Shown: positions 1,054-7,598 of the stretch, piece after piece
Numbering within the stretch: the stretch's first letter is position 1
Layout: every line of letters begins with the position of its first letter
Assembly: GCA_029865665.1 (NCBI GenBank)
Contig: JARXAV010000330.1
Coordinates: 1-7,598, forward strand
Direction: 5' to 3'
Length of the DNA: 7,598 nt
Origin: Flectobacillus sp.
Lineage (GTDB): Bacteria > Bacteroidota > Bacteroidia > Cytophagales > Spirosomataceae
Made by a program: the position numbers and the translations under genes
Notes under the pieces: model-generated
Database searches by the model: none
What the model saw: only the letters and a program-made list of their open reading frames with translations
What the model was told of the DNA's origin: nothing

Positions 1054-2745
1054 ATGTCACAATTCATAAATTTAAACACCATAATCGGGAATGGCAAATC
1101 CTACCAAGTTCCCATTTTTCAAAGAGATTACTCTTGGGAAAAAGATGATTGGGAAGATTTATGGAATGACATTGAAGAAATTCCAAATGATAAAACACAT
1201 TATCTAGGGTATCTAGTTTTACAAAATAATAGAGAGGAAGAAGACTCATTTTGGGTAATTGACGGACAACAAAGGCTTACAACCCTTTCAATTATAGCCT
1301 TAGCAGTTACAGCACTTTTTAAAAAATGGTCAAATGAAAATATTGATGCTGAAGATAATAAAATTAGATTTGATAAAATTACCGAACGCTATTTAGGTAA
1401 TTTTTCTACTTCTAAGCTTTCTATAAGTCCAAAGCTTACTTTAAATAGAAACAACGATGATTATTATAAAAGCTGGTTGCTCAAATTGCGACAGCCTGCT
1501 TCACTGTCAAGGCTAAAACCCTCTCAAAGGTTAATGCAAAAAGCCTTCAACTATTTTTTTGAACAGATTGAAGAAAAATTCAAGACGAATAAATCAGGAG
1601 CAGATCTTGCTGACTTCCTCGAAAAAATAGTTGGAAATGGAATCATCTTTACCCAAATTATTGTAACAAATGACCTAGATGCTTTCAAAGTATTTGAAAC
1701 ATTAAACGCAAGAGGAGTTAAACTTTCTACTGCTGACTTATTAAAAAACTATCTGTTTAAATTAACGCATAATTTGGGAGAATTAGACTTGGAAGAAGCA
1801 GAAAGACGTTGGCTTAATATTTCAGATACAATTAGGGGGAACGATCTAACTACGTTTATACGTCACTTTTGGAATAGCAAATATAAGTTAGAGCGACAGC
1901 CAACCCTTTTTAAAGCCATAAAACGAGAAATTAAAACAGCAGAATTAGCATTTGATTTTTTGAATAATTTGGAAACTACAAGCCTTTTTTATACCGCTTT
2001 TAATAATCCAAACGATGAAATTTGGAATAAAGAGGAGAGAAATTGGCTAAAAGTATTGGTACTACTTAATGTATCAACTTGCTATTCATTAATGCTCGCT
2101 GCTCTTGAAAACTTACCTCGTGGAGACTTCAAAACATTACTCAGAGAACTTGCTGCCATTACTTTTAGGTACAATTTAGGGGATTTAAACCCAAATGAAG
2201 CCGAAAGAATATTTAGTAAAGTGGCTAACGAAATTGCCAAAAAACAACTAGTTACTGTTAAAGAGGTAGTATTATCGTTGAAAAGCATTTATGTATCCGA
2301 TGATAACTTTGAGCAAGCCTTTTCAACGGTAATTATTAATACAAGAAGAAAAAAAGAGTTGGTCAAGTATATTCTGGTTAGTATTGAAAATCAAATAGCG
2401 AATAAGGACTATCAACCAGAAGATGCAGTATCCACGATAGAACATATCTTGCCTGAAAATCCTGGAAGCTTGTGGGATGATAAATTTCCAGTAGATATCC
2501 AAGACGACTATATATTCAGATTAGGTAACTATTCACTACTGGAAAAAGGCATCAATAATAAATTAGGGAGTAATCTACCCTTTACGAGTAAATTAGACGA
2601 GTACAAAAAATCATCTTATTTATTGTCTAGTAAATGGTGTAATTACGATGATTTCTCACCAAAGGAAATTGCGTTGAGACAAGAAAAGATGGCACAAGTA
2701 GCCAAAGGAATTTGGAGAAGTGCGTACATAAATTCACTCGTATAA
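1054..2745 (+). CDS. DUF262-DUF1524 protein, single-chain GmrSD-like type IV restriction endonuclease
   Basis: 563 residues from the ATG at 1054. An in-frame TTG at 1018 would add 12 residues unlike the family, whereas the ATG places the DUF262 N terminus (SYQVPIFQRDYSW, about 16-28) at the usual distance. The N-terminal DUF262 domain carries DGQQR (70-74), the nucleotide-binding/hydrolysis motif of GmrS, SspE and BrxU relatives, and the FETLNARG...ADLLK block (214-231). A helical middle follows. The C-terminal DUF1524 His-Me nuclease domain shows the HxxP motif HILP (464-467), then RLGNYSLLE (489-497), a downstream Asn pair (501-502) and a K...Y..S tail. Relatives use NTP binding to gate cleavage of modified phage DNA (glucosylated hydroxymethylcytosine for GmrSD; phosphorothioate context for SspE); the target here is unknown. 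No methylase, Ssp or BREX gene is beside it. Sampled lines give about 29% GC against about 40% in neighbours, suggesting horizontal acquisition. Both active sites look intact. No convincing promoter was found in 969-1053. Confidence 0.9.
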   Translation: MSQFINLNTIIGNGKSYQVPIFQRDYSWEKDDWEDLWNDIEEIPNDKTHYLGYLVLQNNREEEDSFWVIDGQQRLTTLSIIALAVTALFKKWSNENIDAEDNKIRFDKITERYLGNFSTSKLSISPKLTLNRNNDDYYKSWLLKLRQPASLSRLKPSQRLMQKAFNYFFEQIEEKFKTNKSGADLADFLEKIVGNGIIFTQIIVTNDLDAFKVFETLNARGVKLSTADLLKNYLFKLTHNLGELDLEEAERRWLNISDTIRGNDLTTFIRHFWNSKYKLERQPTLFKAIKREIKTAELAFDFLNNLETTSLFYTAFNNPNDEIWNKEERNWLKVLVLLNVSTCYSLMLAALENLPRGDFKTLLRELAAITFRYNLGDLNPNEAERIFSKVANEIAKKQLVTVKEVVLSLKSIYVSDDNFEQAFSTVIINTRRKKELVKYILVSIENQIANKDYQPEDAVSTIEHILPENPGSLWDDKFPVDIQDDYIFRLGNYSLLEKGINNKLGSNLPFTSKLDEYKKSSYLLSSKWCNYDDFSPKEIALRQEKMAQVAKGIWRSAYINSLV

Positions 2746-2781: not shown

Positions 2782-2840
2782 TGTTAATCTTTTGGAGTCT
2801 GTCAACCTAAAGGAAGTTTTGCTCCTCCATTTCGTATATT

Positions 2841-2878
2841 CCACAAAAAGCCCTCACCGAAGCGAAGGCTTTTTGTGG
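2841..2878. terminator. Bidirectional terminator between convergent genes
   Basis: A perfect 12-bp inverted repeat (CCACAAAAAGCC at 2841-2852 with 2867-2878) has a 14-base loop. The A5 and T5 runs are built into the stem, so an AAAAAGCC...GGCTTTTT terminator appears on either strand. It ends 14 bases from the stop codon of the minus-strand 600-residue gene and lies 95 bases after the DUF262 gene, serving both. Confidence 0.85.
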
Positions 2879-2892
2879 ATTAGCTTATTCGA

Positions 2893-4695
2893 TTAATTCA
2901 AAAAAAACTGACATTGTAAACTGGCTAAATCTTCGCTTGCTTTGTCTAAGGCAGCATCAAATTGAGTTTTAACCTGTTTCGATATTCCCTCTAATTGGCG
3001 GTAATATGCAATGCCATTTTCCATGTTTTTATAAAACTCGTTAAGATATTTTTTACGTTTTGCATCTACTAAACTTCCTGCATCTTTGGCAACTTGCTCT
3101 GCTAAGTAATTGATATATAGCTTCAACTCAGCAATAAATACGTGCGGACGGGTATCGTTGGTTAAGTCATGATTTCTACCATAAATATAATCAACCATCG
3201 TTTGCAGACTGACGATATTCGAGAAATTGGCAATATTTGGCCCCGGGCAAATGGTTACCGCTTCTAGCTTTTTCAAGAAAGGCACTTTATACACCTTCGA
3301 AGCCGCATTACTCAAACCAATACATAAACATTCTTTATCTTGTACCTCTGCCACTTGTTCTTTAAACTGCTTTTCGGGCAAATCCAAGGATTTTAACTGG
3401 TCGATTTTCTGTTTCTGATACTTCTGCGAAGCCGTACAAATGGGTTCTGTTGTAAATTCGGTATTGAACGCCAAATGCTTTTCGGTACAAGGACTCCCTG
3501 GTTTTCCATTCAGAATACGCACTTGCTTTTCTAAATCTGAACTTGTGCCTTTTAAGTAATGAAAACGAACTCCCAATGGCGAATTATTACTCAATACAAT
3601 ATCACTTTCTTTGGCTTTTGCCAACAAATCCAAGGTATCGCTGTCAACGGTAGTAGCCTCTGGAACAAGTAAGAATGGTGTTCCCCAACCTGTGCCTTGT
3701 ACTCCATAATGTTGCTGAATAAATTGGTCCTCTTCTGCTGTACCAATTCCGCCCTGTGCCGTAATTCGCACGGGGTGAGGTTGGTCAAACCCTGCTTTTC
3801 CTTTTGCTTTCAAGGCTTGGTTATAAATTTCAAAAATAGAAGCGATTAACTCCTCTTTTTTGGCTTTAAACTCTTCTAAAATTGGCCCCATTAAGTAGCC
3901 ATCGGTTGCAAAAGCATGACCCCCACAGTTTAAACCCGACTCAATTCTGAATTCACTTACCCAAATGCCTTTCTTAGCAAGGTATTTTCCTTGTACCAAA
4001 GCAGAACGGTAATCGCTTACTTTGATGACAATTTTTTTCTTGAATACACCCTGATTATCCGCATCAAACTGGTCGCATTTTTCAAGGTAGTTATACAAAC
4101 GTGGATTCAACCCTGCTGAAAAAATAATCGAAGAGTTCGTCAAATCGCTTTTTACATACCCCCTCAAAGCTGCTACCGCATCCGAGCCGTCTTCTATCGG
4201 CTGACCTTCTTTATCCAAACGATTGCCGTCTAATTTGGTCATGATGTTTACATCAATGCTACCTGCTACCAGTTGTGATTTCAAATATTCTTCCATGATG
4301 GTTTTTGAAGCCCCATTTTCTGAAGACATTACTTCTTGATAAATCTTTTTAAGATTACTCGTATCGGGTAACATTTCAAAGTATTTAACCAACTCTGAAC
4401 CAACTTCAAAAGCCGAATTTTTCATTTTCTCGACCTGCCCCTGCACAATTTTATTCACCAAATTCAAATAATCAGTGATTCGTTTGGCACGAGAATCTTC
4501 TTCATTTGCTAAAATGGGTTGATACGCCTCTTGAATTGTGGGATAATAATAACGTCGCATCATTTCAATTAGGTTATCTTCCACAATGGAAAGTACCGAC
4601 GAAATGCCAAACCTCGCTACTTTGATAGGAGAATCAATGGTGTATGCCAATCCCATGACAGGGATATAAAAAGTATGTTCTGAGTGATTATCCAT
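2893..4695 (-). CDS. Putative nitronate-monooxygenase-like TIM-barrel flavoprotein (function unknown)
   Basis: 600 residues; the ATG is followed within about ten residues by the conserved-looking segment IPVMGLAYTIDSPIKVARFG (11-30). No signal peptide or membrane span is seen, so it is probably cytoplasmic. Several segments resemble the FMN-binding TIM barrel of nitronate monooxygenase/PfaD-type enzymes: a strand SIDVNIMTK (146-154), a GLNCGGHAF segment (254-262) like the family's EAGGH loop, TAQGGIG (312-318) like the AAGGI phosphate-binding loop, and GVQGTGWGTPFLLVPEA (331-347) like GVQMGTRFL. It differs from simple NMOs (about 320-380 residues) by a charged helical insert near 40-140 and a C-terminal part of about 240 residues. 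That part holds cysteines at 403, 420, 456, 458 and 483, including CLC and ICPGPN, and ends in helical sequence. The cysteines could hold a metal or Fe-S cluster, which is inference. I recall similar uncharacterised long proteins in Bacteroidota but no established function. The 70-residue HMA-like gene lies 140 bp upstream on the same strand; a strong terminator follows. Confidence 0.7.
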   Translation of the reverse strand: MDNHSEHTFYIPVMGLAYTIDSPIKVARFGISSVLSIVEDNLIEMMRRYYYPTIQEAYQPILANEEDSRAKRITDYLNLVNKIVQGQVEKMKNSAFEVGSELVKYFEMLPDTSNLKKIYQEVMSSENGASKTIMEEYLKSQLVAGSIDVNIMTKLDGNRLDKEGQPIEDGSDAVAALRGYVKSDLTNSSIIFSAGLNPRLYNYLEKCDQFDADNQGVFKKKIVIKVSDYRSALVQGKYLAKKGIWVSEFRIESGLNCGGHAFATDGYLMGPILEEFKAKKEELIASIFEIYNQALKAKGKAGFDQPHPVRITAQGGIGTAEEDQFIQQHYGVQGTGWGTPFLLVPEATTVDSDTLDLLAKAKESDIVLSNNSPLGVRFHYLKGTSSDLEKQVRILNGKPGSPCTEKHLAFNTEFTTEPICTASQKYQKQKIDQLKSLDLPEKQFKEQVAEVQDKECLCIGLSNAASKVYKVPFLKKLEAVTICPGPNIANFSNIVSLQTMVDYIYGRNHDLTNDTRPHVFIAELKLYINYLAEQVAKDAGSLVDAKRKKYLNEFYKNMENGIAYYRQLEGISKQVKTQFDAALDKASEDLASLQCQFFLN

Positions 4696-4786
4696 ATAAA
4701 TATCAATTAATGAATGTTGTCGCTTCTATTATTCAACAAATTAAGCCATTAATGTTATGCCGTTTACTGACATTAATTCTATCTAC

Positions 4787-4804
4787 TATTGACAATTATC
4801 AATA
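4787..4804. promoter_or_regulatory. 18-bp near-perfect palindrome upstream of the 600-residue gene
   Basis: TATTGACAATTATCAATA pairs with itself at 8 of 9 positions. It lies in the 140-bp gap between the HMA-like gene and the minus-strand NMO-like gene, 92 bases before the latter's start codon. The even symmetry and lack of a loop suit a dimeric regulator's operator better than a terminator. No TAnnTTTG promoter element was recognised near it, so its role is uncertain. Confidence 0.35.
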
Positions 4805-4835
4805 CATACTTTTAGCTACACCCCAATCGCATAAA

Positions 4836-5048
4836 TTAGAACAATTCTTCACAATCGTACGCTAGCCGACGTATGATTGAAATAATGTGTTTAGGTGGAA
4901 TTAAATAATCGGACACCACCGTTAGAGCATTATTAAAATCCGTAAAATTGATTTTAAAACTATTTACGCCAATGCTACGTAGCGAATCCCAAAGTGCTTG
5001 AATACCCAAAGGAGAAGTAATGTTAGTTTTGAATGTGAGCGTTGCCAT
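4836..5048 (-). CDS. Small HMA-like (ferredoxin-fold) protein lacking the CxxC metal site
   Basis: 70 residues, starting MATLTFKTNI. The FKTNI opening (6-10), the region around IGVNSFKINF (26-35), the strand ALTVVS (41-46) and the closing helix ending RLAYDCEEL (61-69) follow the order of Bacteroidota heavy-metal-associated domains. Those typically read FKTNI-C-x-x-C, then a helix, a strand, a LTV strand, a helix and a GY/GF-x-x-E ending. Where the CxxC pair should be, this protein has TSPLG (11-15). The only cysteine is Cys66, near the end. It therefore probably keeps the beta-alpha-beta-beta-alpha-beta fold but cannot bind Cu or Zn in the classical way, and may act in protein interaction or regulation. 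No signal peptide is seen, so it should be cytoplasmic. It is upstream of the NMO-like gene on the same strand with a 140-bp gap and no terminator between, so cotranscription is possible. The HMA relationship is pattern recognition by eye; expression as a real gene is likely but not proven. Confidence 0.65.
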   Translation of the reverse strand: MATLTFKTNITSPLGIQALWDSLRSIGVNSFKINFTDFNNALTVVSDYLIPPKHIISIIRRLAYDCEELF

Positions 5049-5403
5049 ATAAAACGGTTTATTTGATTTAAAATTGAAAGCCTAAAAATGATTACTGAAA
5101 CCTTTGCTTACTTATCAGTTTCAACTACAATATTGAGTACACACGATACTGTAACTTCATTTGGTAATACTTATCTCATAGTGTGCTATCAGGGTTCGGT
5201 TATTATTTAATACTAAAGAATAGTTTCCATAAAATGTGGCTATTACTAATTGCGTTGTACTGAATTAACCAATTAATTACTCAAGAATAACTTATTACTA
5301 GACGTATCTGGAACTTTTTTCCTATCAGATTCTGAACTACTCACCCCCTTTCTCCTACCTCCTTTTTGCCGTTTTCAATGGTTCTTTCATTTTCTTAACG
5401 AAT
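5049..5403. other. Non-coding stretch, putative long leader of the minus-strand genes
   Basis: No convincing gene is seen here on either strand; stops are frequent and only very short frames exist. If the leftward promoter at 5404-5435 is used, this stretch would be a leader of about 350 nt before the HMA-like start. Near its beginning, 5341-5367 is almost pure pyrimidine on the plus strand (2 purines in 27), giving a purine-rich RNA on the minus strand that includes AGGAGG (5363-5358). Minus-strand mini-frames of 11 codons (ATG at 5390) and 23 codons (GTG at 5344) lie in it, but neither has support. No intrinsic terminator or known riboswitch was recognised. Confidence 0.35.
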
Positions 5404-5435
5404 CAAAATTAGATTTTATTTAGACTAATTCCAAA
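5404..5435 (-). promoter_or_regulatory. Leftward Bacteroidota-type promoter toward the HMA-like gene
   Basis: On the minus strand a -33 TTTG (5435-5432, inside the left arm of the inverted repeat) is followed after exactly 20 bases by TAATTTTG (5411-5404), a perfect match to the Bacteroidota -7 consensus TAnnTTTG. Transcription would start near 5398. The nearest good minus-strand gene is the HMA-like one, about 350 bases on. The element match is direct; use of the promoter is inferred. Confidence 0.55.
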
Positions 5436-5470
5436 TAATTATTCATTTTTATTTGGAATTAGTCTAAATA
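5417..5470. repeat. Perfect 22-bp inverted repeat, candidate double Fur-like operator
   Basis: Bases 5417-5438 and 5449-5470 are exact reverse complements separated by 10 bases. Within each arm, a 19-bp core (5418-5436 and 5451-5469) beginning ATTTAGA and ending TCCAAAT is itself an imperfect palindrome matching its own reverse complement at 14 of 19 positions. That is the 7-1-7 style of symmetry seen for Fur-family sites. The core centres are 33 bp apart, about three helical turns, so two dimers could sit on the same DNA face. Each arm covers a -33 TTTG, so binding would block both divergent promoters. Fur is the natural candidate because the adjacent gene is a siderophore-type receptor, but the regulator is not identified by the sequence. 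Confidence 0.65.
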
Positions 5471-5483
5471 GATACAAACTTTG
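5452..5483 (+). promoter_or_regulatory. Rightward Bacteroidota-type promoter of the TonB receptor
   Basis: TTTG at 5452-5455, inside the right arm of the inverted repeat, is followed after 20 bases by AAACTTTG (5476-5483), which matches TAnnTTTG except at the first base. The predicted transcript starts near 5490, giving a leader of about 28 nt to the ATG at 5518. No Shine-Dalgarno site precedes the ATG, which is normal for Bacteroidota; the leader is A-rich just before the start (ATAAACAAC). Confidence 0.6.
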
Positions 5484-5517
5484 CATCATCAAACTAACAC
5501 AGTTATACATAAACAAC

Positions 5518-7598
5518 ATGAAACAATTATTCACCAGCTTATTACTTTTATTATCCCTTGTCAGCTTCGCTCAGTCGGGCAGCATTTCAGGAAATGTATT
5601 CACCTCCGACGGCAAAGCAGCCCAATTTGTCAATGTCATTTTAAAAGGGACAAACAAGGGTACTGTTGCCGATAAAGAGGGGAAATATGAATTCAAGGCA
5701 CTCAAGGCGGGTACTTACACAGTTCAAGCAAGTTTTGTAGGATTAAAAACAGAAACGAAAAAGGTAACTCTACTCGAAAATGCTACCATCACCCTTGATT
5801 TTGACCTCAGCATTAATGCCAAAGAATTAGAAGAAGTAGTCGTTACCAGTAATCCGAGTAAATATGTGACCGATTACCCTTCGATTTCACTCCGCTTAAA
5901 AACGCCCTTACTGGAACTACCTCAAAATATTCAGGTCGTAACGGCTCAAACCTTAAAAGACCAGCAGATTTTTGATATGTCGGAAGGAGTTACTCGGAAT
6001 GTGAGTGGAGCTTCTCGTTCGGAACATTGGGAAACATACAGTCGTATTGTGATGCGTGGGTCGAGAATTGCCGCTTTCAGAAATGGGATGAACGTAACCG
6101 AAGTATGGGGGCCACTCACCGAAGACATGAGTATGGTCGAACGCATTGAAATTGTGAAAGGGCCAGCAGGTTTTATGCTTGCAAGTGGCGAACCAAGCGG
6201 CTTTTATAATGTGGTAACGAAAAAACCAACAGGGCTCACCAAATCAGAAATTGGTATGACCGTAGGGAGTTTTGGAACCTACCGAAGTACCGCAGATTTT
6301 GACGGTAAATTAAGCAAAGACGGTAAAATTCTGTATCGCCTCAACGTAATGGGACAAATGAAAGGTACACACCGTGATTTTGAATATAACAATCGGGTGT
6401 CGGTTGCTCCCGTTGTGAAGTACCAAATTAACCCAAGCACTTCATTAACAGCAGAATACACCTACCAAGGAGTTGAGATGTCGCCGATTGGTTCAGCTTA
6501 TGCTTTCTCGGCAAAGGGTATTAGTGATTTACCCTATAATTTCACCACCTTAGAAGCGAATCTTAAACCTACTACCATCAAAGACCAATCGTTATTTGTA
6601 ACCCTTTCGCACAGCATTAATGCCAATTGGAAGTTTACAGGTCAACTAGCCTATTTGCATTACGACCAAGTGGGACAAAGTCTTTGGGCATCGGGCTTTA
6701 GTGGTGATACCTTAAAAAGAACCACGTCAATCTGGGATATTTTAGGGACAACCAAAGTAGGGCAATTCTTCTTAAATGGCGATGTACAAACAGGAAGTAT
6801 CAAACACCGTATTTTAGCAGGATTAGATATGGGCAATAAAGACTATTATCATGATTGGTCACAAAGCGGAAAAATTGGAAATCTAAACGTTTATAATCCT
6901 GTTTATGGACAAATAGCAGCCAAAGATTACCCCAAATTTGACCGTAGTTTAGACATTCGTGAGCGTGGTATTCATTATAACAATAGCTATACAGCATTGT
7001 ATGCTCAAGATGAAATCAGATTATTGAACGATAAACTACGATTTACGTTGGCAGGACGCTATACTACCACCAACGACCAAGACCCTTATTCGGGTACTGT
7101 TAAAGCAGAGAAATTTACACCTAGAATTGGGCTTAGCTATTCAGTAAATAAAAATACCAGTGTGTATGCAGTCTATGACGAAGCCTTTATTCCGCAAGCA
7201 GGAGGCACGTTTGAAGGAAAGAAATTTGACCCTGTTATTGGCGATAATAAGGAAATTGGCATCAAAAGAGAATGGTTAAACGGGCGTTGGAATGCTTCCG
7301 TGGCAGCTTATCGCATTACAAAAAATAACGTATTGACAGATGATCCTAACCACCAATTTTTCTCTATCCAATTGGGACAAACACAAACACAGGGTATTGA
7401 ATTTGATGTACGTGGGCAACTGTTGGAAGGCTTAGAATTGACCATGAACTATGCCATTACCGATGCGAAAGTAACCAAAGACACGGACGGTTCTCAGGTA
7501 AGCAGACAAGTGCCAGGCACTGATAAGTATATTTTTAATACGTGGTTAAACTATCGTTTCCAATCGGGACAAGTAAAAGGATTAGGTTTATCCTTTGG
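5518..7598 (+). CDS. TonB-dependent siderophore-type outer-membrane receptor, 3'-truncated
   Basis: 693 residues are visible before the right edge; full-length relatives have about 780-810, so the last barrel strands are missing. It should import a ferric siderophore across the outer membrane using TonB-ExbBD energy. Residues 1-18 form a Sec signal peptide (MKQ, a Leu-rich core, then SFA before Gln19). Residues about 22-98 are a carboxypeptidase-regulatory-like beta-sandwich (GSISGNV, KGTNKGTVADKEGKYEF), the usual Bacteroidota N-terminal extension. EEVVVTS (105-111) is the TonB-box-like segment. The plug follows, with LPQNIQVVTAQTLKDQQ (134-150), an RG segment (VMRGS, 178-182) and ERIEIVKGPAGFMLASGEP (208-226) then SGFYNVVTKKP. 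These are hallmarks of the FhuA/FpvA siderophore-receptor subfamily rather than the SusC glycan type. From about 240 on is the 22-strand barrel. No SusD-like gene is visible, but downstream is not seen. The ligand cannot be told. The promoter overlaps a Fur-like operator, which fits iron control. Confidence 0.93.
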   Translation, partial: MKQLFTSLLLLLSLVSFAQSGSISGNVFTSDGKAAQFVNVILKGTNKGTVADKEGKYEFKALKAGTYTVQASFVGLKTETKKVTLLENATITLDFDLSINAKELEEVVVTSNPSKYVTDYPSISLRLKTPLLELPQNIQVVTAQTLKDQQIFDMSEGVTRNVSGASRSEHWETYSRIVMRGSRIAAFRNGMNVTEVWGPLTEDMSMVERIEIVKGPAGFMLASGEPSGFYNVVTKKPTGLTKSEIGMTVGSFGTYRSTADFDGKLSKDGKILYRLNVMGQMKGTHRDFEYNNRVSVAPVVKYQINPSTSLTAEYTYQGVEMSPIGSAYAFSAKGISDLPYNFTTLEANLKPTTIKDQSLFVTLSHSINANWKFTGQLAYLHYDQVGQSLWASGFSGDTLKRTTSIWDILGTTKVGQFFLNGDVQTGSIKHRILAGLDMGNKDYYHDWSQSGKIGNLNVYNPVYGQIAAKDYPKFDRSLDIRERGIHYNNSYTALYAQDEIRLLNDKLRFTLAGRYTTTNDQDPYSGTVKAEKFTPRIGLSYSVNKNTSVYAVYDEAFIPQAGGTFEGKKFDPVIGDNKEIGIKREWLNGRWNASVAAYRITKNNVLTDDPNHQFFSIQLGQTQTQGIEFDVRGQLLEGLELTMNYAITDAKVTKDTDGSQVSRQVPGTDKYIFNTWLNYRFQSGQVKGLGLSF

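What the first reader, a model, noticed from the sequence alone, without database searches (positions are those of the whole stretch)
5404..5483. Mirror-symmetric divergent promoter built on a perfect 22-bp inverted repeat
Seen directly: both arms of the repeat carry TTTG, and 20 bp outward on each side lies a -7 element (TAATTTTG to the left, AAACTTTG to the right). Known: the Bacteroidota sigma factor uses TTTG at -33 and TAnnTTTG at -7, and 20 bp is the spacing those positions imply. The symmetry extends operator and -33 element to both directions, so one regulator would switch both transcripts at once. Such a precisely mirrored arrangement is unlikely by chance.
Basis: partly seen in the sequence, partly recalled or inferred. 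Interest (0 to 1): 0.7.

Follow-up and report, generated by a model that had tools for sequence, protein, structure and literature searches.

The report
Mirrored iron-controlled two-way promoter
Two back-to-back copies of the iron-sensor (Fur) binding site, each fused to a promoter firing outward, most likely let one repressor switch on an iron-siderophore receptor and a small neighbouring gene together when iron runs short; the layout recurs in related bacteria.

Summary
A perfect 22-bp inverted repeat (5417-5438 / 5449-5470) carries an outward TTTG in each arm, with TAATTTTG 20 bp further out on the left (exact consensus) and AAACTTTG on the right (one mismatch). It is not one operator: each arm holds a 19-bp near-palindrome, two mismatches from the Fur box ATTTAGAATTATTCTAAAT published for Riemerella (same phylum). 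The site is two Fur boxes, each overlapping its own -33 element, facing apart. Right gene: TonB siderophore receptor (5518->). Left gene: a 70-aa HMA-fold protein (5048->4836). Among 48 paired-box sites tabulated, every spacing is 31-33 bp, and a -7 element sits 19-21 bp outward mostly where the arm has TTTG. Fifteen further sites are mirrored like this one. Four receptor homologs, Flectobacillus major among them, keep both boxes, both promoters and the same divergent small gene. Against it: the closest complete homolog (Arcicella, 86%) keeps both boxes but only the right promoter; only 12 of 70 homolog upstreams have closely paired boxes; perfect arm identity is not conserved. No transcript is mapped. 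Verdict: a Fur-repressed divergent promoter; the kind is known from E. coli, this mirrored Bacteroidota build was not found in print.

The parts
5417..5438 (.). left arm of the perfect 22-bp inverted repeat
5449..5470 (.). right arm of the perfect 22-bp inverted repeat
5418..5436 (-). left Fur box (ATTTGGAATTAGTCTAAAT on the minus strand)
   Evidence: 2 of 19 mismatches to the Riemerella Fur box (PMC5609570; count); motif score 25.7 of at most 26.9, model built without the window
5451..5469 (+). right Fur box (ATTTGGAATTAGTCTAAAT), start-to-start spacing 33 bp from the left box
5432..5435 (-). -33 element TTTG of the left promoter, inside the left Fur box
5404..5411 (-). -7 element TAATTTTG of the left promoter; inferred start near 5399
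   Evidence: position of TAnnTTTG at -12 to -5 from PMC9723704
5452..5455 (+). -33 element TTTG of the right promoter, inside the right Fur box
5476..5483 (+). -7 element AAACTTTG of the right promoter (5 of 6); inferred start near 5488
   Evidence: PMC9723704
5518..7598 (+). TonB-dependent siderophore receptor, runs off the window
   Evidence: TIGR01783 above cut-off, PF00593, PF07715, PF13715
4836..5048 (-). 70-aa protein with predicted HMA (ferredoxin-like) fold, no CxxC; probable first gene of the left transcript, about 350-nt leader
   Evidence: relatives divergent from the receptor in four genomes; model pLDDT 85, best PDB matches HMA domains

Best explanation
A divergent, Fur-repressed promoter pair of an iron-starvation locus. 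Two Fur boxes 33 bp apart (about three helical turns) each contain the -33 element of a promoter pointing outward. With iron present, Fur dimers on both boxes cover the -33 elements and spacers (about -37 to -19 on each side) and shut both promoters. With iron scarce, Fur leaves, and RNA polymerase starts near 5488 on the + strand (siderophore receptor) and near 5399 on the - strand (70-aa HMA-fold protein). Shown here: the sequence elements, their recurrence, the spacing rule, and conservation of the divergent gene in four relatives. Inferred: Fur as the regulator, repression, both start sites, response to iron.
For: (1) Box: the consensus equals the R. anatipestifer Fur box; promoter fragments with such boxes are bound by Fur in EMSA (PMC5609570, PMC10986502, passages). 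(2) A Fur-family gene (PF01475) is itself the divergent gene at the homolog L070, looks the same in L074, and another lies next to a box pair in Emticicia (L054). (3) Every spacing among 48 sites is 31-33 bp although 29-36 was allowed. (4) Without the window, 54 of 57 outward box sides with TTTG have a -7 of at least 5/6 at N19-22, against 11 of 37 sides without TTTG (Fisher 1.7e-11, not corrected for kinship); after thinning to 8 dissimilar sites 8 of 9 against 1 of 7 (P 0.009). The -7 sits at N20 in 32, N21 in 19, N19 in 3. (5) Homologs G042, G083, G058 and G008 (F. major) have TTTG and 6/6 -7 on both sides plus the divergent HMA-like gene. (6) At L050, a mirrored site with a tandem left neighbour, the left -7 is missing. 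(7) Six HMA-like genes that were not used to build the profile lie within 3.4 kb of a box pair; one of the six (G012) has an internal stop.
Against: No transcript, footprint or iron response was seen. The closest homolog with a readable upstream (Arcicella, 86%) has both boxes but no left TTTG and no left -7. Among 70 homolog upstreams only 12 have boxes 29-36 bp apart, and 4 the full mirrored form with this divergent gene. The window's left leader is long: 369 nt from box to ATG against 85, 86 and 192 in three relatives. The right -7 misses its first T. Eleven of 37 sides without TTTG also have a -7, so TTTG is not strictly needed. Sites share ancestry, and the -7 test weakens to P 0.009 when thinned.
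Confidence: 0.82

Rival explanations
1. One-way promoter: both Fur boxes serve only the receptor, the left box as an auxiliary operator, and the left TTTG/TAATTTTG match is silent.
For: The closest readable homolog, Arcicella, keeps both boxes but only the right promoter, and so do G051 and G045. A mirrored pair also occurs beside a tandem neighbour (L050). The left leader is about 350 nt.
Against: The left promoter is the only exact consensus match in the window. Four homologs keep both promoters and a divergent relative of the same gene. Where the left neighbour is tandem (L050) the left -7 is missing, whereas here it is perfect.
Confidence: 0.12
2. The boxes belong to another iron or manganese regulator (DtxR/MntR type), with the same divergent layout.
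For: The box is AT-rich and palindromic; DtxR-family sites are also 19-bp palindromes (recalled). No binding was tested here.
Against: The consensus is identical to a Fur box with EMSA support in the same phylum; Fur-family genes sit divergent from or next to such pairs.
Confidence: 0.05
3. A hairpin: terminator, RNA structure or cruciform rather than operators.
For: A perfect 22-bp stem; six weak miRNA-precursor hits in Rfam reflect the stem only, all far under their gathering scores.
Against: It lies upstream of both inferred starts and so would not be transcribed by them; no terminator was found in 4700-5600; homologs break the stem (5 of 19 box mismatches in F. major) but keep boxes and promoters.
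Confidence: 0.02
4. An invertible promoter (phase variation) or the end of a mobile element.
For: Bacteroidota have invertible promoters (search listing only).
Against: Only 10 bp lie between the arms and the -7 elements lie outside them. The flanking genes that I identified (a few by Pfam, the receptors in other loci by eye) are TonB receptors, DUF6607, DUF6686, HMA-like or Fur-family genes in varying contexts.
Confidence: 0.01

Closest known systems
E. coli fepB/entC bidirectional promoter (PMC5020551, abstract and passages)
   Same: divergent iron-uptake genes, two non-overlapping Fur boxes, both directions derepressed by iron shortage
   Different: E. coli boxes differ from each other (5 and 3 mismatches to consensus), one lies downstream of its promoter, -35/-10 elements; here identical boxes, mirrored, each overlapping a -33 element
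Riemerella anatipestifer Fur-regulated TonB receptor promoters (PMC5609570, PMC10986502, passages)
   Same: same 19-bp Fur box, same phylum, TonB receptors as targets
   Different: the passages read describe boxes near single genes, not mirrored pairs or divergent promoters
Flavobacterium psychrophilum sigma-A promoters (PMC9723704, passages)
   Same: TAnnTTTG element at -12 to -5
   Different: describes the general promoter class, not this arrangement

Membership tests
Bacteroidota Fur box | 19-bp palindrome ATTTAGAATTATTCTAAAT | tested here: met
   both boxes 2 of 19 mismatches; score 25.7 of 26.9
Bacteroidota Fur box | upstream of iron-uptake genes | tested here: met
   siderophore receptor TIGR01783
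Bacteroidota Fur box | bound by iron-loaded Fur | not testable with these tools
   needs EMSA or footprint
Bacteroidota sigma-A promoter, left | TTTG, 19-21 bp, TAnnTTTG | tested here: met
   N20, 6 of 6
Bacteroidota sigma-A promoter, right | TTTG, 19-21 bp, TAnnTTTG | tested here: inconclusive
   N20, 5 of 6; the same AAACTTTG recurs at six other sites of the table
Bacteroidota sigma-A promoter | transcription start 5 bases after the -7 element | not testable with these tools
   needs dRNA-seq or RACE
Fur-controlled divergent promoter | genes facing outward on both sides | tested here: met
   receptor and 70-aa ORF; the same kinds of gene are divergent in four relatives
Fur-controlled divergent promoter | both transcripts iron-repressed | not testable with these tools
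   needs expression data
HMA domain family (left gene) | beta-alpha-beta-beta-alpha-beta fold | tested here: met
   AlphaFold model pLDDT 85, best PDB match E 4.3e-4, TM 0.75
HMA domain family (left gene) | CxxC metal-binding motif and Pfam PF00403 score | tested here: not met
   no CxxC in the sequence, no Pfam hit
Invertible promoter | promoter lies between the inverted repeats | tested here: not met
   10 bp between the arms, -7 elements outside

The most novel reading that the evidence does not exclude
A portable, spacing-locked cassette of the order that includes Arcicella and Flectobacillus: two Fur boxes exactly 31-33 bp apart, each fused to a -33 element, set between different iron genes, with Fur dimers cooperating across three helical turns and with the two arms occasionally made identical by quasi-palindrome (template-switch) correction; its small divergent product is a new CxxC-less HMA-fold protein of the iron-starvation response.
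Probability: 0.25. Interest if true: 0.55.

Novelty: new variant of a known kind. Interest (0 to 1): 0.42.

Why it matters
It gives a concrete sequence rule (two Fur boxes 31-33 bp apart; TTTG in the arm marks a direction that has a -7 element) by which iron-controlled promoters, their direction and unannotated small iron genes may be read straight from genomes of this group, and it links a conserved small HMA-fold protein, DUF6607 and DUF6686 to iron starvation.

Tried and rejected
Hairpin, terminator and invertible-promoter readings were considered and rejected. Plasmid search with the 61-bp core: no match. DNA search of window 4700-5700 in the Flectobacillus MAG: no match; that MAG's receptor contig starts inside the gene. 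Searches for the mirrored form beyond the family: 6 of 390 genomes of the order sample and 2 of 395 of the class sample, each count including Arcicella itself, so 5 and 1 others. The form is therefore not confined to one family, but is rare in the class sample under that exact pattern; the class hit G772 (L209) was not examined. Three of 73 receptor homologs (G060, G109, G147) were not fetched for the upstream count. The box-pair table uses loci held at that time; of sites with identical 50-52-mers one was kept. Boxes reading ATTTTG (5 sites) were counted as without TTTG. Neighbour calls rest on simple ORF picking (at least 60 aa), not curated annotation. Homogenised arms: 6 of 16 mirrored sites have identical 19-bp boxes (permutation mean 1.29, P 0.0003), but the mean mismatch equals the null and relatedness is not corrected, so it is only a lead. 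Searches for this architecture in print found nothing: 'divergent promoter' + 'Fur box' + 'Bacteroidetes' 0 papers; 'Fur box' + 'divergently transcribed' + 'Flavobacteri' 0 papers; 'DUF6607' 0 papers; open-licence library only. The passages seen in PMC9618737 and PMC9331221 give no box sequence.

Full report
What is there. The intergenic region 5049-5517 is AT-rich (29% G+C against 37% for the window). It holds a perfect 22-bp inverted repeat, arms 5417-5438 and 5449-5470, loop 10. Each arm holds TTTG pointing outward; 20 bp outward stand TAATTTTG (minus strand, 5411-5404) and AAACTTTG (plus strand, 5476-5483). The repeat is longer than in any shuffled copy (at most 16 in 30 whole-window copies, at most 13 in 500 intergenic copies), and the left promoter is the only exact TTTG-N(16-24)-TAnnTTTG in the window.

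What the arms are. Each arm is a near-palindrome centred on one base. The Fur box of Riemerella anatipestifer, same phylum, is given as 5'-ATTTAGAATTATTCTAAAT-3', predicted with RegPredict; promoter fragments holding such boxes were bound by Fur in EMSA (PMC5609570 and PMC10986502, passages read). Both window boxes (5418-5436, 5451-5469) differ from it at 2 of 19 positions. So this is a pair of Fur boxes, start-to-start 33 bp. In each box one of the two differences (A to G at position 5) creates TTTG, the -33 element. With TAnnTTTG at -12 to -5 (PMC9723704, passages) the inferred starts are 5488 (+) and 5399 (-), and each box covers about -37 to -19 of its own promoter.

Genes. Right: TonB-dependent siderophore receptor (TIGR01783). 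Left: a 70-aa ORF (5048-4836) with no Pfam match, then a 600-aa ORF (4695-2893), also unassigned. The 70-aa protein has one relative (97% identical) when searched alone and 38 with a small profile. Its model (pLDDT 85) is beta-alpha-beta-beta-alpha-beta and matches HMA metal-binding domains in the PDB, but it lacks the CxxC motif.

Relatives of this receptor. The genome scan gave 33 loci; the most similar, L030 (Flectobacillus MAG, 96% in its best segment), begins inside the gene, so its upstream cannot be read. A family search gave a match at E up to 1e-200 in 73 of 150 genomes. I read up to 700 nt upstream of 70 of the 73: 12 of 70 have two boxes 29-36 bp apart. In 4 more (G105, G090, G032, G067) the right box lacks TTTG but both -7s are present; the divergent gene is Fur-family in L070 (PF01475), looks the same in L074, and in L072 and L073 I saw only its length. 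In Arcicella aurantiaca (86%) the left box has TTTA and no -7, and my profile found no HMA-like ORF in the loci around that receptor. G051 and G045 also have only the right promoter. G066 is a weak pair. The other 58 have single boxes, boxes at other spacings, or none. The full mirrored form is thus real but a minority state.

The general rule. In the 222 genomes of Arcicella's family that were searched, a strict pattern found 12 pairs in 9 genomes and a relaxed one found pairs in 35 genomes; the reversed control gave none. With further loci from the order sample I tabulated 48 distinct pairs. Every spacing is 31 (12), 32 (19) or 33 (17) bp although 29-36 was allowed. Without the window, 54 of 57 sides with TTTG have a -7 match of at least 5/6 at N19-22, against 11 of 37 sides without TTTG; the -7 lies at N20 in 32, N21 in 19, N19 in 3 and rarely elsewhere. 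Random 70% AT sequence gives 5%. Thinned to 8 dissimilar sites the same contrast is 8 of 9 against 1 of 7 (P 0.009). In the 27 one-sided pairs the -7 is on the TTTG side in 27 of 27 and on the other side in 6 of 27. Of 16 mirrored pairs including the window, 13 have both -7s and 15 have outward ORFs on both sides. Exceptions: L050 has a tandem left neighbour and no left -7; L051 has AAACTTTA on the left; L116 lacks the right one.

The left gene in the iron regulon. The 11 best HMA-like hits in the family (E below 1e-22) all lie within 3.4 kb of a box pair (10 at 31-33 bp spacing, Emticicia at 61 bp). Five of them were profile members or close kin of members found beside boxes, so only the other six (G071, G041, G001, G012, G057, G033) are independent; G012's has an internal stop. 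Weaker hits (the rest of 95 of 222 genomes with a match) were not examined. DUF6607 (L096) and DUF6686 (L041, L080) proteins lie in the same clusters by Pfam; similar ones were seen by eye elsewhere.

Against. The leader of the left transcript is long (ATG 369 nt from the box; 85, 86 and 192 in L080, L083, L075). The perfect arms are not conserved: in F. major they differ at 5 of 19 positions. No expression data exist here.

Known or new. E. [quoted passage not shown] What differs is the mirrored, spacing-fixed build in which each Fur box contains the -33 element of the Bacteroidota promoter. Two literature searches found no description; the library is limited to open licences.

Noticed in passing
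window 2893-4695 (-): 600-aa ORF with no Pfam or NCBIfam match and no significant PDB sequence match; may be in the left transcript
   Followed up: partly
window 4836-5048 (-) and relatives: small HMA-fold proteins without CxxC clustered with Fur-box pairs, DUF6607 and DUF6686 genes
   Followed up: partly
mirrored sites: 6 of 16 mirrored pairs have identical 19-bp arms against 1.29 expected; possible quasi-palindrome correction, not corrected for kinship
   Followed up: partly
window 5486-5493: TCATCAAA around the inferred start recurs after the -7 of some other receptor promoters; seen by eye
   Followed up: no
L054 6429-6508 and 10999-11079 (Emticicia): Fur-box pairs with 61-62 bp spacing; a Fur-family gene lies just before the second pair
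   Followed up: no
window 1054-2742 (+): GmrSD-type protein (PF03235, PF07510)
   Followed up: no
window 2837-2882: 19-nt stem-loop, 89% complementary, between the ends of the GmrSD-type gene and the 600-aa ORF, perhaps a two-way terminator
   Followed up: no
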